DNA from: Evansella clarkii
Lineage (GTDB): Bacteria; Bacillota; Bacilli; Bacillales; Salisediminibacteriaceae
Direction of reading: 5' to 3'
Assembly (NCBI RefSeq): GCF_002019695.1
Contig: NZ_KV917376.1
Coordinates: 2,254,386-2,318,385, forward strand
Length of the DNA stretch: 64,000 nucleotides
Positions 1,623-44,160 of this stretch are shown in pieces. Made by a program: the position numbers and the translations under genes. The notes beneath the pieces are model-generated. The model was not told the origin of the DNA and ran no database searches. It worked only from the letters and a program-made list of their open reading frames with translations. Positions within the stretch are counted from its first letter, which is position 1. The number at the start of each line of letters is the position of its first letter.

Positions 1623-1657
1623 ACAAGGATGCATATCACTGCATCCTTGTTTTTTTT
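1623..1657 (+). terminator. Rho-independent terminator of the PAS-STAS gene, also unit 0 of the 52-bp repeat array
   Basis: An 11-bp perfect stem (ACAAGGATGCA with TGCATCCTTGT) has a 6-nt loop and is followed by eight T. Its TTGAG end and spacer fall exactly 52 bp before those of the first repeat unit. Confidence 0.88.
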
Positions 1658-1677
1658 GAGCGTGAGCAATCCTATAT

Positions 1678-2232
1678 CTCAAAGGACGCAAGAAGGCCTT
1701 GCATCCCTTGAGCAGGGGCAATCCTACAATTCAAGGGACGCAAGAAGGCCTTGCATCCCATGAGCAGGGGCGATCCTACAATTCAAGGGACGCAAGAAGG
1801 CCTTGCATCCCATGAGCAGGGGCGATCCTACAATTCAAGGGACGCAAGAAGGCCTTGCATCCCATGAGCAGGGGCGATCCTACAATTCAAGGGACGCAAG
1901 AAGGCCTTGCATCCCATGAGCAGGGGCGATCCTACAATTCAAGGGACGCAAGAAGGCCTTGCATCCCATGAGCAGGGGCGATCCTACAATTCAAGGGACG
2001 CAAGAGGTCCTTGCATCCCTTGAGTGTGAGTAATCCTACAATTCAAGGGACGCAAGAATGCCTTGCATCCCTTGAGCAGGGGCAATCCTACAATTCAATG
2101 GACGCAAGAATGCCTTGCATCCCATGAGCAGGGGCGATCCTACAACTCAAGGGACGCAAGAAGGCCTTGCATCCCTTGAGCAAGTGTAACCCTACAACTC
2201 AAGGGACGCAAGAAGTCTTGCACACTTTCAGC
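1678..2232. repeat. Array of eleven 52-bp palindromic repeats (array 1)
   Basis: Units begin at 1678, 1730, 1782, 1834, 1886, 1938, 1990, 2042, 2094, 2146 and 2198, exactly 52 bp apart. Each has a 35-nt dyad (arms like CTCAAGGGACGCAAG and CTTGCATCCCTTGAG around AAGGC) and a 17-nt spacer ending in CCTACAA. Units 3-6 are nearly identical; outer units diverge by point changes but keep length. The last unit is degenerate. The array fills the space between the convergent PAS-STAS (+) and deacetylase (-) genes, and no coding frame is credible in it. The same family occurs at 22.5 kb and 44.1 kb. Confidence 0.93.
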
Positions 2233-2280
2233 CGGAACTGCTACCACCTGAATAGCCAGCCGCTTCCATTTTTCCATTAA

Positions 2281-4395: not shown

Positions 4396-7383
4396 ATGAT
4401 TGAAGTGACACGCAGACAGTTTCTGAAATTGTCAGGTGCAACAGCGGCTACTCTTGCGGTAATCGAACTTGGTTTCGATCCGAAGAAAGCTCAAGCAGCG
4501 TCAAAAGAACTAAAAATCGCAGAATCAAAAGTGACGCCGACGATATGTCCGTATTGTTCTGTTGGCTGCGGTATTCTGGTTCACGTTAAAAATGACGATG
4601 TGGTGTATACGGAAGGGGATCCGGATCACCCGATTAACAGAAGCACACTATGCAGTAAAGGAAACTCTGTCAGACAGCTTTTTACTTCAGACCGAAGAGT
4701 GAAAAAGCCTATGTACCGGGCACCAGGAAGCAACACCTGGGAAGAGAAGGACTGGGACTGGACGCTTGACAGAATTGCTGAAAAAATCAAGGAAACCCGT
4801 GATAAAACCTTTGTCACACACGATGACGGAATGCCTGTAAACCGTACAGAAGCCATTGCCAACCTGGGCGGTGCTGCGCTTGAGAATGAAGAATGCTACC
4901 TGATCGTAAAATTAATGCGCAGCCTGGGACTCACTAATATTGAGCACCAGGCGAGGATATGACACTCCTCTACGGTTGCCGGTCTGGCACCTACATTAGG
5001 TCGTGGCGCAATGACAAACCACTGGAACGATATTCAGTTCAGTGACTGTATGCTGGTTATCGGAGGAAACCCTGCCGAAAACCATCCGATCAGTATGAAA
5101 TATGTAACTAAAGCGAAAAAGAATGGCGGTAAACTGATTACAGTAGACCCTCGTTTTACGAGAACTGCTGCCGTTTCAGATATATACGCACCAATGCGTT
5201 CAGGTACAGATATCGCTTTTATCGGCGGATTGATTAACTACGTACTGGAAAATAAGCTGTACCATGACGAGTATGTCAGGAAATATACAAACGCTTCGTT
5301 TATTATCAGCGAAGACTATGATTTTGAAGACGGCATTTTCACAGGCTATGACGAAGACAGCCGAAGCTATGAAAAATCCACGTGGGTGTTCGAGAGGGAT
5401 GAGGAAGGAAACATCGTCAAAGACGAATCGCTGTCTCATCCAAGAACGGTTTACCAAATGATGAAAAAACATTTCAGCCGCTATGATGTTGAGACAGTCT
5501 GTTCAGTGACCGGAACACCGAAAGAAGATTACCTGAAGGTTGCAGAAACTTTTTGTGGCACGGGGGCAAAAGAAAAAACAGGTACGATTATGTATGCGAT
5601 GGGAACAACTCAGCACACAGTAGGTTCCCAGAACATCAGAGCTTACGGGATGCTCCAGCTTCTTCTTGGAAATGTGGGAAGAGCAGGCGGCGGTGTTAAC
5701 GCCTTACGTGGAGAATGTAATGTGCAGGGCTCAACAGACTTCGGTTTGCTCTTCCATCTGATGCCTGGATACATCGGGGCTCCTACACAGTCAGAAAGAC
5801 ATCAGTCTCTTGATGCGTATAATGAAAATGAAACTCCAGCAGCCGGATTCTGGTCAAATAAACCAAAGTTTCTGGCAAGCTATCTGAAAGCGCAATACGG
5901 CAAGAATGCAACAAAAGCAAACGACTTTGGATATGACTTTTTCCCGAAAGGCCGCAGAAACTATTCCCATATTTCCTTATTTGAATCTATGTACGACGGA
6001 GAGATTAAGGGAATGCTCATCTGGGGACAGAACCCGATGGTCGGCGGTGCTAACGTGAGAAAAGTGCGAGCAGCACTCCAGAAACTGGACTGGCTTGTAG
6101 CTATGGATCTCTGGGAAACAGAAACAGCTGCATTCTGGAAAGAGAAGGCTGGAAGCAACCCGGCAGAAGTGCAGACAGAAGTGTTTATGCTCCCTGCTGC
6201 TGGTCCTTTTGAAAAAGAAGGATCTGTGACTAACAGCGGGCGCTGGATGCAGTACCGCTGGAAGGCAATTGATCCGAAGAACGATTCCAGATCCGACTCA
6301 TGGTTTGCCCATAATCTTGCTATAAGACTTCAGAAGTTATATGCGAATGATAACAGCGAGATTGCTAAGCCATTTAAAGCAATGGACTGGAGTTTTGGAG
6401 ATTCAGATTACCCTGACATGGATTTAGTAAACCGGGAGATAAATGGCTATGATCTGAATACAGGAAGAACAGTAAATCATTTTGCAGACCTTAAAGATGA
6501 TGGCACAACATCTAGCGGAAACTGGATTTATGCAGGATTCTATCCTGACGCAGCACCAGGAGAAGAGAAAAACTATGCGAAACGAAGAGATGACAAAGAT
6601 ACAGGGATGGAAAACTATCTGAACTGGTCTTATGCATGGCCAGCTAACAGAAGAATCCTTTATAACCGCGCCTCTGCTGATCTGAATGGTAAGCCATGGA
6701 GCAGCGATAAAGAGGGAATCTGGTATGACAAAGCAGCAGAAACCTGGACAGGCTATGATGTTCCTGACTTCGGTGTCGCTACTTCACCATCTGATCCAGG
6801 GTGGGAGAACCCGTTCATTATGCTTCCTGACGGGAAAGGCGGACTATTTGCAGCAGGAATGGCGGAAGGGCCGTTTCCAGAGCATTATGAGCCATACGAA
6901 AGCCCGGTTCCAAATGCTTTCTCCAGTGTTCAGCTGAACCCGGCAGTTAAAATCTGGGGCGGGGATATGAACCAAAAGGGAGAAGCTGCTGACTTCCCGA
7001 TTGTTGCTACGACATACCGTTTGACAGAGCACTGGCAGTCCGGGTCAATGACGAGAAACCTGGAGTGGCCGTCTGAGATTATGCCTCATATGTTCGTGGA
7101 ACTGAGTGAAGAGCTTGCGAAAGAAAAAGGAATTAAAGAAAAAGATAAAGTTGTCATTTCTTCAGCACGAGGGGAAATTGAAGCGTTCGCGATGGTTACT
7201 AAGCGCTTTAAGCCTTACAGTGTTCGGGGCCAGAAGGTACATCATGTAGGTATGCCTTGGCATTATGGATATGAAGGAATTGCTACTGGTTCGATTGCAA
7301 ACTATTTAACACCGCATATAGGGGATGCAAATACGATGATCCCAGAATACAAAGCATTCCTTTGTGACGTAAGGAGGGCTTAA
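4396..7383 (+). CDS. fdnG: Formate dehydrogenase alpha subunit, selenocysteine- and Mo/W-bis-MGD-containing (FdnG type)
   Basis: This is a single 995-residue reading frame when the TGA at 4960-4962 is read as selenocysteine (Sec189). The context ...NIEHQARI-Sec-HSSTVAGLAPTLGR matches the active-site segment of E. coli FdnG (NQARV-Sec-HGPTVA). The frame is open with no other stop to 7383. A Tat signal is present at the start (TRRQFLK, then a hydrophobic stretch and AQAA), so the enzyme is exported folded. A [4Fe-4S] motif CPYCSVGC...C follows (residues ~52-90), then the molybdopterin oxidoreductase domain and the C-terminal dinucleotide-binding domain. The reaction is formate to CO2 with electrons passed to FdnH. 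The length is close to E. coli FdnG (1015). Gene finders that stop at TGA will split it into 4396-4962 and 5011-7383. Confidence 0.95.
4960..4991 (+). promoter_or_regulatory. UGA selenocysteine codon and bSECIS element of fdnG
   Basis: Eleven nucleotides after UGA (4960-4962) comes a hairpin: GGTTGCC (4974-4980), loop GGTCT (4981-4985), GGCACC (4986-4991). The bulged U in the 5' arm and the GGUCU loop match the SelB-binding apical hairpin of E. coli fdhF/fdnG, at the same distance from UGA. The host must therefore carry selA, selB, selC and selD elsewhere. Confidence 0.93.
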
Positions 7384-21100: not shown

Positions 21101-22309
21101 GTGGCAAAAAAACGACGTTTATTTACATCTGAATCAGTAACGGAGGGGCATCCTGATAAAATCTGTGACCAGATTTCCGATGCTATTTTAGATGAAATTA
21201 TGAAAAATGACCCAAACGCCCGCGTAGCGTGTGAAACCTCGGTAACAACCGGATTAGTACTGGTAGCCGGAGAAATCAGCACTACAACTTACGTGGACAT
21301 TCCAAAAATTGTCCGTGAAACGATAAAAGGAATTGGTTATACAAGGGCTAAATACGGGTTTGACTACGAAACTTGTGCAGTTTTGACTTCTATTGATGAA
21401 CAGTCTCCGGACATTGCCCAGGGTGTGGACCAGGCACTTGAAGCCCGTGAAGGACAAATGACAGATGAAGAAATTGAAGCAATCGGAGCTGGTGACCAGG
21501 GGCTGATGTTCGGATATGCTGATAACCAGACACCTGAACTTATGCCACTGCCAATTTCACTGGCACACCGTCTATCCCGCCGTCTTAGTGAAGTGAGAAA
21601 AAGCGGAGTAGTGGACTACCTGCGCCCGGATGGAAAAACACAGGTAACTGTAGAATACGACGAAAATGACAATCCAGTGAGAATCGACACGATTGTTATT
21701 TCTACACAGCATCACGCTGAAGCTACTTTGGAAGAAATTAAGGCGGCATTAAAAGAGCATGTAATCAAGCCGGTCGTCCCTGAAGAACTCATTGATGAAG
21801 AAACAAAATACTTCATTAACCCTACAGGCCGATTTGTTATCGGTGGCCCGCAGGGAGATGCGGGACTTACCGGACGTAAGATTATTGTTGATACTTACGG
21901 CGGATACGCACGCCACGGTGGAGGTGCTTTCTCAGGGAAGGACGCTACAAAGGTAGACAGATCCGCAGCATACGCAGCCCGTTATGTTGCGAAAAATATC
22001 GTGGCTTCCGGACTGGCTGACCGCTGTGAAGTGCAGCTTGCATATGCAATTGGTGTTGCCCAGCCAGTATCAATCTCTGTTGATACATTTGGTACAGGCA
22101 AAGTTTCTGAAGAGGTGCTTGTAGATGTTGTTCGTAACAACTTTGACCTGAGACCTGCAGGAATCATTAAAATGCTTGACCTGCGCAGACCAATTTACAA
22201 GCAGACAGCTGCATACGGGCACTTTGGCCGTACAGATGTTGAACTGCCATGGGAGCGTACAGACAAAGCAGAAATTATGAAAGAAGAAGCTGAAAGAATT
22301 TCTGAATAA
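21101..22309 (+). CDS. metK: S-adenosylmethionine synthetase
   Basis: The protein has 402 residues. It makes SAM from methionine and ATP. Family motifs include [15 protein letters not shown] (residues ~13-27), [12 protein letters not shown] (~119-130) and the P-loop-like GGGAFSGKD. The start is GTG 21101, with AAGGAGGT upstream. An S-box riboswitch 230 bp upstream gives feedback control by the product. The 227 bp between the riboswitch terminator and the start hold no other gene. A strong terminator follows. Confidence 0.97.
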
Positions 22310-22502: not shown

Positions 22503-23386
22503 CTCAAGGAATGCAAGAGGTTCTTACATTCCTTGAGGGAGAGAGTTTTAACGGCTCAAGTAGTGCAAGAAGTTCTTGCATCCCATGAGAGGGAGGATTG
22601 GGTGGGTTCAAGTAGTGAAAGAGGTTCGTGCATCCCATGAGAGGGAGGATTGGGTGGGTTCAAGTAGTGAAAGAGGTTCTTGCATCCCATGAGAGGGAGG
22701 ATTGGGTGGATTCAAGTAGTGCAAGGAGGTCTTGCATCCCTTGAAAGAGAGGAAAAGGTGAACTCAAGTAGTGAAAGAGCGTCTTGCATCCCTTGAAAGA
22801 GAGGAAAAGGTGAACTCAAGTGTTGTAAGAGCGTCTTGCGTCCCTTGAAAGACAGGAAATGATGCACTCAAGTGTTGCAAGAGCGTCTTGCCTCCCTTGA
22901 AAGAGAGGAAAGGGTGAACTCAAGTAGTGCAAGAGCGTCTTGCATCCCTTGAAAGAGAGGAAAGGGTGCACTCAAGTGTTGCAAGAGCGTCTTGCATCCC
23001 TTGAAAGAGAGGAAAGGGTGCACTCAAGTGGTGCAAGAACGTCTTGCATCCCTTGAAAGAGAGGAAAGGGTGCACTCAAGTGTTGCAAGAACGTCTTGCA
23101 TCCCGTGAGAGAGGACATTGCCTCGACTCAAGTACTGCAAGAAGGTCTTGCACCCCATGAGAGAAAGAATTGTAACTACTCAAGTACTGCAAGAGGTGGA
23201 TTCATGCATTGAGGAGGAAGATCGCTCCGTCTGAATTCCAGAAAGAGCCCGATTCATCCCTTGAGCGAGACAATCACCCTGTCTGAATTCCAGAAAGAGC
23301 CCGATTCATCCCTTGAGCAAGACGACCACCCCGTTTGGATTCCAGAAAGAACCCAATTCCCCCCTGAGCAACACCATCGCTCCTCC
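22503..23386. repeat. Array of seventeen 52-bp palindromic repeats (array 2)
   Basis: Units start every 52 bp from 22503 to 23335 without a single register slip. The typical unit is CTCAAGTAGTGCAAG, AGCGT, CTTGCATCCCTTGA plus a purine-rich spacer GAGAGGAAAGGGTG. Sub-blocks differ: units 3-5 end in CATGAGAGGGAGGATTGGGTGG, units 6-12 in TTGAAAGAGAGGAAAGG, and units 15-17 use a diverged core (GAATTCCAGAAAGAGCCCG) but keep CATCCCTTGAG and the length. The array lies between convergent metK (+) and ytoA (-). The short open frame at 22449-22640 is repeat-derived. Confidence 0.93.
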
Positions 23387-23452: not shown

Positions 23453-23986
23453 CTATCTTTTTTTACCAATACCTTTCTCTTTCAAGTCTTTATAATACTG
23501 GCCTTTTTCGATATATTCTCTGCGAATCCGGTCCATATCCATCAAATCTTCATCATTTATTTCACGAATGACCTTAGCCGGGCGGCCGAACGCCATAGTT
23601 CTTGGGGGAATTACTTTCCCAGGAGGCACCAGGCTTCCTGCGCCGATAAATGCTCCTTCACCAATCTCGGCTTTATCTAAAATGACAGATCCCATCCCAA
23701 TCAGCGCATGCTTCCTGATAACACAACTGTGCAAGGTGCACTGGTGTCCTACAGTTACCCCATCCTCGATTACAAGGGGATTATTTGGGCTTTGATGAAG
23801 CATACTGTTATCCTGAATATTAACTCGTTTGCCAATAAAAGTCGGAGCAACATCCCCGCGGATCACTGTGTTAAACCAAATACCTGATTTTTCACCGATC
23901 GTTACATCCCCGATTACTACAGCACCTTCAGCGAGATAAGCTGTTTCATCAATTTCAGGCCATTTATCTTTATATGGGTAAATCAT
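23453..23986 (-). CDS. ytoA: Gamma-carbonic anhydrase-like hexapeptide-repeat protein (YtoA)
   Basis: The protein has 177 residues. Repeated hexapeptide turns (GAVVIGDVTIGEKSGIWF, then VTVGHQ, ALIGMGSVI, IGEGAFIGAGS) predict a left-handed beta-helix. Conserved histidines (MLHQS, VGHQCTLHSC) match the zinc/metal-binding positions of gamma-class carbonic anhydrase relatives, including the E. coli YrdA group. The C-terminus is a helical tail. The true activity of YtoA-type proteins is unsettled. It sits in the Bacillus-conserved ytoA-ytpA neighbourhood, transcribed toward array 2. Confidence 0.9.
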   Translation of the reverse strand: MIYPYKDKWPEIDETAYLAEGAVVIGDVTIGEKSGIWFNTVIRGDVAPTFIGKRVNIQDNSMLHQSPNNPLVIEDGVTVGHQCTLHSCVIRKHALIGMGSVILDKAEIGEGAFIGAGSLVPPGKVIPPRTMAFGRPAKVIREINDEDLMDMDRIRREYIEKGQYYKDLKEKGIGKKR

Positions 23987-44073: not shown

Positions 44074-44160
44074 TTTAGTTCCAGAAAAATAATCTTGCGT
44101 GCCCTGAATGAGGGGAAGAGATGAACTCAAGTAGTGCAAGAGCATCTTGCGAGCGGGCAT
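44074..44160. repeat. Two degenerate 52-bp palindromic units (array 3)
   Basis: Units at 44074 and 44126 carry CTTGC at the same internal offset (20), and the second has CTCAAGTAGTGCAAGAGCAT identical to array 2 units. The 52-bp register is kept. The pair lies between convergent ytgP (+) and the HxlR-type regulator (-). Confidence 0.75.

What the first reader, a model, noticed from the sequence alone, without database searches (positions are those of the whole stretch)
22503..23386. Seventeen-unit 52-bp array that keeps perfect register while its sequence drifts
Every unit start from 22503 to 23335 is 52 bp from the last, although three sub-blocks have different spacers and units 15-17 have a mostly replaced core. 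Length is conserved better than sequence. 52 bp is close to five turns of B-DNA, so the same face of the helix is presented each time. That suggests selection on spacing, as for a bound protein, rather than on an encoded product.
Basis: partly seen in the sequence, partly recalled or inferred. Interest (0 to 1): 0.74.

Follow-up and report, generated by a model that had tools for sequence, protein, structure and literature searches.

The report
Fork-oriented 52-bp tandem repeat arrays
The array is one of many 52-base-pair tandem repeats that this bacterium and its near relatives carry between genes; the constant length with changing sequence was already published, but within each repeat family most of these arrays also point the same way relative to DNA replication, which gives the puzzle a handle that can be tested.

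Summary
In detail: 17 unit starts, all 16 steps exactly 52 bp. The array lies between convergent metK and a hexapeptide-repeat gene. It belongs to a published, unexplained class: Bacillus tandem repeats of constant 52-nt (or 20-21-nt) length and variable sequence (PMC8161180). Added here: (1) 40 arrays of two sister genomes show 18 non-modal steps against 709 distinct substitutions, versus 189 indels per 1488 substitutions in nearby noncoding DNA: about five-fold fewer. (2) In four genomes of the genus, arrays follow the replication fork once sorted into families: 89 of 96 loci, 74 of 80 strong ones. One global orientation gave only 29 of 42, and Heyndrickxia coagulans 17 of 26, so the rule is not universal. 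(3) In the genus 3 of 94 arrays lie in divergent gaps; H. coagulans (3 of 20) shows no such avoidance. (4) At five orthologous sites the two species hold different families, still of 51-52 bp. I read this as phase-constrained satellites, copied between loci and oriented by replication. A bound protein is untested. New member of a known kind.

The parts
22503..23386 (+). Main array, 17 units of 52 bp (family A; units 15-17 a diverged variant). The + orientation follows the fork: G000 dnaA lies at C1:1137665-1138996 on the minus strand, and this locus is on the arm replicated in increasing coordinates
22920..22952 (.). Dyad of unit 9, the typical unit layout: outer arms TCAAG/CTTGA, inner arms TGCAAGA/TCTTGCA, followed by a purine-rich spacer
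23179..23386 (+). Units 14-17: hybrid unit 14, then the variant (GAATTCCAG...GATTCATCCCTTGAG), in register with the rest
1656..2235 (+). Second array, family C, period 52, about 10.5 copies (TRF 1679-2222), between a STAS-domain gene and a convergent polysaccharide deacetylase gene
44093..44151 (+). Relic of about one family-A unit in a gap called convergent
21101..22309 (+). metK, S-adenosylmethionine synthetase, upstream neighbour
23453..23986 (-). Hexapeptide-repeat protein (gamma-carbonic-anhydrase-like by my reading), convergent neighbour

Best explanation
The array is a 52-nt satellite of the Bacillus class described by Subirana and Messeguer. Shown as sequence patterns: constant period despite drift, depletion of length changes, rarity in divergent gaps in this genus, fork-following orientation in this genus, turnover of units, and different families in the two species at some sites. 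Inferred: successive units are held five helical turns apart because a host factor engages them on one face of duplex DNA, reading shape or the inverted repeat rather than one fixed sequence (a nucleoid-organising or fork-associated role). New copies are made by replication-coupled copying between loci, which fixes their orientation. The factor and the copying step are both inferred.
For: Indel depletion: 18/709 against 189/1488, Fisher p about 1e-14. Arrays of period 51-52 with other sequences in G000, G002 and G007 (model R1 has no match in G002 or G007) and at orthologous sites of G000 and G003; for 4 of 4 site pairs tested the consensi do not align beyond shuffles at 0.05 (15, 4, 9 and 45 of 60 shuffles reach the score, the second being borderline). 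The second published size class, 20-21 nt, is also a whole number of helical turns, and 20-21-bp arrays occur in these samples. Orientation follows the fork: family A 24/25, B 12/13, C 10/11, D 2/2, G002 family 17/21, G007 family 24/24 loci; with bits of at least 80 and a clear strand, 74 of 80. Family D hits listed all fit (10 loci in G000, 6 in G003, counted by me; 3 of these 16 are also counted under B). In 35 of 38 convergent gaps, where transcription gives no preferred side, the fork rule holds. Fold z-scores are below -1.4 in 12 of 14 consensus units.
Against: No binding data. One genome holds several families, so a single sequence-reading protein is unlikely. Two of 14 consensus units, including that of family A, show no clear fold beyond shuffles (z -0.8 and +0.4), and the arms of A1 show no covariation. 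Homogenisation by unequal exchange could itself purge odd-length units; and the two ratios compare variants within arrays with differences between species. The fork rule is not significant in H. coagulans (17 of 26, p 0.17) and has 7 exceptions in the genus. One global orientation gave 29 of 42; the high figures need the family split, with the sign of each family set by its majority. Many G007 loci are only one or two units long. Copying between loci is only suggested: 5 of 6 orthologous pairs are no closer than the best G003 paralogue (one a tie), but all 6 are at least slightly closer than the mean of the G003 paralogues. H. coagulans arrays do not avoid divergent gaps (3 of 20). 36 steps of 51 bp are tolerated.
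Confidence: 0.42

Rival explanations
1. Self-propagating satellites with no host function: units spread and expand as hairpin-bearing single strands at the replication fork, a process with a built-in length of about 52 nt; orientation and constant length are by-products.
For: Fork polarity is what single-strand, lagging-strand elements show (IS200/IS605, passages). Inverted repeats in most consensus units. Gain and loss of whole units: about 10 units in G000 against about one in G003 at L011/L214, and about 7 against 2 at L024/L216. Rarity in divergent gaps fits tolerated insertions. Weak polarity in H. coagulans suggests that polarity is not needed for a function.
Against: No known enzyme with such a ruler (recalled). 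Y1 transposase genes occur in all four genomes searched, but the 12 loci fetched (of 16 matches, about 1.5 kb on each side) hold no 52-bp array. A single-strand ruler does not explain why both published size classes are whole numbers of helical turns.
Confidence: 0.32
2. Transcribed arrays act as RNA: small RNAs, or hairpin tracts at gene 3' ends that affect stability or termination.
For: 52-nt satellites are seen in B. coagulans RNA-seq (PMC8625621). 80 of 94 arrays lie downstream of a leading-strand gene (38 convergent, 42 tandem). Most consensus units fold.
Against: Orientation follows the fork even where both neighbours run against it: 10 of 11 by the simple gene caller. Of the 5 of these with Pfam-supported genes on both sides, 4 (at 3 sites) follow the fork; the fifth, L024, does not as assigned, but its family is uncertain. 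No covariation in the arms of A1. A fixed 52-nt period is not needed for RNA hairpins.
Confidence: 0.12
3. Plain replication slippage and unequal recombination: length is kept because duplications copy whole units, with no selection.
For: Middle units are closer to the array consensus than the end units (identity 0.955 against 0.900 and 0.887, 32 arrays).
Against: It does not give the same 51-52 bp in families that do not align, nor fork orientation.
Confidence: 0.08
4. Polar landmarks for a DNA translocase, like SpoIIIE recognition sequences.
For: GAGAAGGG occurs 36 times fork-ward and 0 times in reverse in the G000/G003 arrays; the motif is confirmed in PMC5869595 (passages).
Against: Families D, E2, E7 and H. 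coagulans have none, and family A only 3 in about 14 kb. The motif is fork-skewed outside arrays too: 31 against 5 in the four samples. It was looked for after seeing it.
Confidence: 0.05

Closest known systems
52-nt tandem repeats of Bacillus (Subirana & Messeguer 2021, PMC8161180; and their J Bacteriol 2020 paper, not held)
   Same: Period 51-53, noncoding, several families per genome, species-specific sequence, short motifs with their reverse in the same repeat, a 20-21-nt class alongside
   Different: Fork orientation, rarity in divergent gaps, indel depletion and different families at the same site are not described in the text read; 'orientation', 'intergenic' and 'palindrom' have 0 hits
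IS200/IS605 and REP/RAYT elements
   Same: Hairpins; orientation tied to replication for IS200/IS605 (passages)
   Different: Tandem arrays of fixed period, none beside a Y1 transposase in the 12 loci examined
Eukaryotic satellites
   Same: Fast sequence turnover, exchange between arrays, constant unit length (recalled)
   Different: Short arrays in gaps between genes of a bacterium
SpoIIIE recognition sequence
   Same: Exact GAGAAGGG, fork-ward, mostly in B- and C-assigned arrays
   Different: Absent from other families

Membership tests
52-nt tandem repeats of Bacillus | At least 4 repeats of 51-53 nt, regular length | tested here: met
52-nt tandem repeats of Bacillus | Noncoding; length not a multiple of three | tested here: met
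   Between called genes, only short ORFs inside
52-nt tandem repeats of Bacillus | Several families of equal length and different sequence in one genome | tested here: met
52-nt tandem repeats of Bacillus | Sequence specific to one species or a few close ones | tested here: met
   Model R1 matches 3 of 40 genomes, one of them a single weak hit
52-nt tandem repeats of Bacillus | Transcribed (shown for B. coagulans only) | not testable with these tools
   No RNA data for this strain
REP/RAYT | Cognate Y1 transposase beside repeats | tested here: not met
   No 52-bp array in the 12 of 16 Y1 loci fetched
CRISPR array | Constant repeats with unique spacers | tested here: not met
   Spacers repeat along with the unit
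CRISPR array | cas genes nearby | not tested
   -
SpoIIIE recognition sequences | GAGAAGGG in fork orientation | tested here: inconclusive
   Only some families carry it, and the motif is skewed outside arrays too

The most novel reading that the evidence does not exclude
Array sites are long-lived slots: a 52-bp array is kept at a given gene junction, pointing with the replication fork, while the repeat sequence filling it is swapped for another of the same length. Something in the cell therefore reads five-turn phase and replication direction, not sequence.
Probability: 0.25. Interest if true: 0.88.

Novelty: new member of a known kind. Interest (0 to 1): 0.6.

Why it matters
The 52-nt satellites have been an open puzzle since they were described: constant size, no conserved sequence, no known function. 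Orientation by replication, depletion of length changes and different families at the same site turn this into concrete experiments (array inversion, half-turn length changes, pull-downs with unlike families) and narrow the candidates to something that acts on duplex phase or at the fork.

Tried and rejected
RNA-family explanation of the array: the three Rfam hits at gathering score in the window are a T-box, a SAM riboswitch and a SECIS, none in the array. Arm covariation as RNA evidence: none in A1. RAYT as mobiliser: no arrays in the 12 fetched Y1 loci. Polarity from base composition alone: the fork-ward strand is purine-rich in A, B, C, D and E7 (0.56-0.63) but not in E2 (0.44), so composition does not explain it fully. 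End-specific growth: of 32 arrays, 14 have the one end more degenerate and 14 the other. SpoIIIE motif as the general function: most families lack it. One orientation for all 42 arrays gave 29 following the fork; the palindromic core makes families A and B look opposite, so I split families and report both results. The family-A pattern found nothing in genome contigs, where the window's own or very near genomes may be left out.

Limits. Origins are placed by dnaA and termini by the midpoint; the H. coagulans origin by GC skew of 28 loci. Local GC skew agrees with the assumed fork direction at 39 of 42 arrays; it does not at L018, at L044 (0.082, so L044 may be a further exception) and, by a hair, at the main array (-0.007). 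Family assignment of L024, L026, L027 and L046 is uncertain (close scores); L026 would be an exception under family A. Two arrays split by an IS (L042, L043) count twice each, and the relic at 44093 counts once. The sign of family D (2 of 2) carries no weight by itself. Gene contexts come from a simple ORF caller; Pfam or inspection revised some: L181 is convergent, L044 is not divergent, L018/L037 are uncertain on one side. The census is not exhaustive: part of the first-look candidates were scored and long lists were cut. One search has 24 loci of the G007 family; the listing shows 25, the extra one (2801306) having given no hit. The contiguous samples were placed by me: the mid-arm sample of G000 to include known arrays, those of G002 and G007 around the orthologue of the gene at 23453.

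Full report
The array. Units start at 22503 + 52n, n = 0 to 16. In all 16 steps the best shift is zero. Tandem Repeats Finder calls it 22555-23164 and 23227-23371, period 52. A typical unit is a 33-nt dyad (TCAAG nnn TGCAAGA nnn TCTTGCA nnn CTTGA) and a spacer. Unit 14 joins a left arm of the main type to a right arm of the 15-17 type without losing register (inspection). The array sits between metK (+) and a hexapeptide-repeat gene (-) that converge on it. A second array (1679-2222 by TRF) also lies between converging genes, and a relic of about one unit lies at 44093-44151.

Genome-wide. A 208-bp query matches 88 places and a covariance model 165. The sister G003 gives 166. In some searches only 150 first-look candidates were scored. 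In a panel of 40 genomes the model matches G000, G003 and, with one weak hit, G005. TRF on loci and on contiguous 200-400-kb samples shows other sequence families with period 51-52 in G000 (for instance at 1021058, 1833108, 1902127), G002 (3445667 with about 31 copies, 3508093) and G007 (3586736, 3639805), together with a 20-21/41/82-bp class.

Known class. This matches 'Tandem Repeats in Bacillus' (PMC8161180; I read all five parts): 1886 of 4029 tandem repeats of 176 genomes have 51-53-nt repeats, without sequence conservation, and 781 have 20-21. A companion paper (PMC8625621; parts 1-2 of 3 read) reports transcription in B. coagulans. The J Bacteriol 2020 paper is not held. In PMC8161180 'orientation' and 'intergenic' have no hits. 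Searches for 52-nt repeats with replication and orientation terms, for replichore and leading strand (no paper) and for papers holding the identifiers of the two works listed nothing on the orientation of such repeats; I saw listings only. The claim 'not in print' reaches no further than these searches.

Length. For 40 arrays with at least 5 units there are 393 steps: 353 of 52, 36 of 51, and 4 of 50, 53 or 54. Eighteen are not the mode of their array, against 709 distinct substitutions. In aligned noncoding DNA of the two species there are 189 indels and 1488 substitutions. The ratio differs five-fold (Fisher p about 1e-14). The two counts are of different kinds (variants within arrays, differences between species), and unequal exchange may contribute by removing odd units.

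Orientation. dnaA gives the origins. Counted per family, with the sign of each family set by its majority: A 24/25, B 12/13, C 10/11, D 2/2, G002 family 17/21, G007 family 24/24; in all 89 of 96. With at least 80 bits and a clear strand it is 74 of 80, 13 of 13 in G007. Many G007 loci are single units or pairs. Two-sided sign tests reach 0.05 for A in both genomes, B in G003, the G002 family and the G007 family (p 1.2e-7), not for B, C and D in G000 or C in G003. One orientation fitted to 42 arrays at once gave 29, because the arms of A and B are mirrored. Local GC skew agrees with the assumed fork at 39 of 42 arrays. In H. coagulans 36D1, queried with a published consensus, 17 of 26 agree (p 0.17). 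So the rule holds in this genus and is not shown elsewhere.

Context. Of 94 arrays of the genus with both neighbours called, 38 lie in convergent gaps, 53 in tandem gaps, 3 in divergent gaps; the sampled gaps of at least 40 bp are 118, 448 and 120. In H. coagulans it is 9, 8 and 3 of 20, so no avoidance of divergent gaps is seen there. Eleven arrays lie between genes called as running both against the fork; 10 of them follow the fork. Pfam supports both neighbours for L010, its orthologue L041, L202 and the middle array of L203, which follow it, and for L024, which does not as assigned but has an uncertain family. L181 turns out convergent and L018/L037 stay uncertain on one side.

Evolution. 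Seventeen of the 23 G003 array loci align with a fetched G000 locus that also holds an array, with flanks 86-94% identical. At five sites the two species hold different families: L013/L225, L014/L213, L020/L215, L043/L219-L220 and L042/L009 (A and B). For the first four pairs the consensi do not align beyond shuffles at 0.05, L014/L213 being borderline (4 of 60). At L011/L214 ten units face about one; at L024/L216 about seven face two; at L027/L217 the array is absent in G003. L222, the G000 region orthologous to L029, shows no array in TRF. In 5 of 6 orthologous family-A pairs the G003 array is no closer to its orthologue than to its best G003 paralogue (one tie), but in all 6 the orthologue is at least slightly closer than the mean paralogue, so copying between loci is suggested and not proven.

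Structure. Twelve of 14 consensus units fold more stably than shuffles at z below -1.4; family A (z -0.8) and the family at 1902127 (z +0.4) do not.

Mechanism. I favour duplex phasing for the length and replication-coupled copying for orientation and spread, at modest confidence. Both are inferred.

Noticed in passing
L042:5420-6798, L043:5570-6953, L225:2608-3987 (G003): Three near-identical copies of an IS (Mutator-family transposase, tested in the L042 copy), each inside a 51/52-bp array; these are the only copies in the fetched loci, which are enriched for arrays.
   Followed up: partly
G000 samples, e.g. C1:1783027, 1939929, 1994946, 2062431: Arrays of 20-21/41/82 bp built on TCGCAAC/TTGCGAA-like motifs, probably the published 20-21-nt class.
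   Followed up: no
mostly B- and C-assigned arrays in G000 and G003: Exact SpoIIIE recognition octamer GAGAAGGG, 36 fork-ward and 0 reverse across the arrays of the two genomes; outside arrays 31 against 5 in the samples.
   Followed up: partly
G000 C1:1000660, 1121139; G003 L212:15361; G000 L221, L224: A separate multi-locus repeat of about 101 bp with GGTGCCAGG/CCTGGCACC-like motifs.
   Followed up: no
window 4396-5015: Rfam SECIS_3 at 4957-5015 overlaps the end of an ORF at 4396-4962: a likely selenocysteine formate dehydrogenase (this reading is recalled).
   Followed up: no
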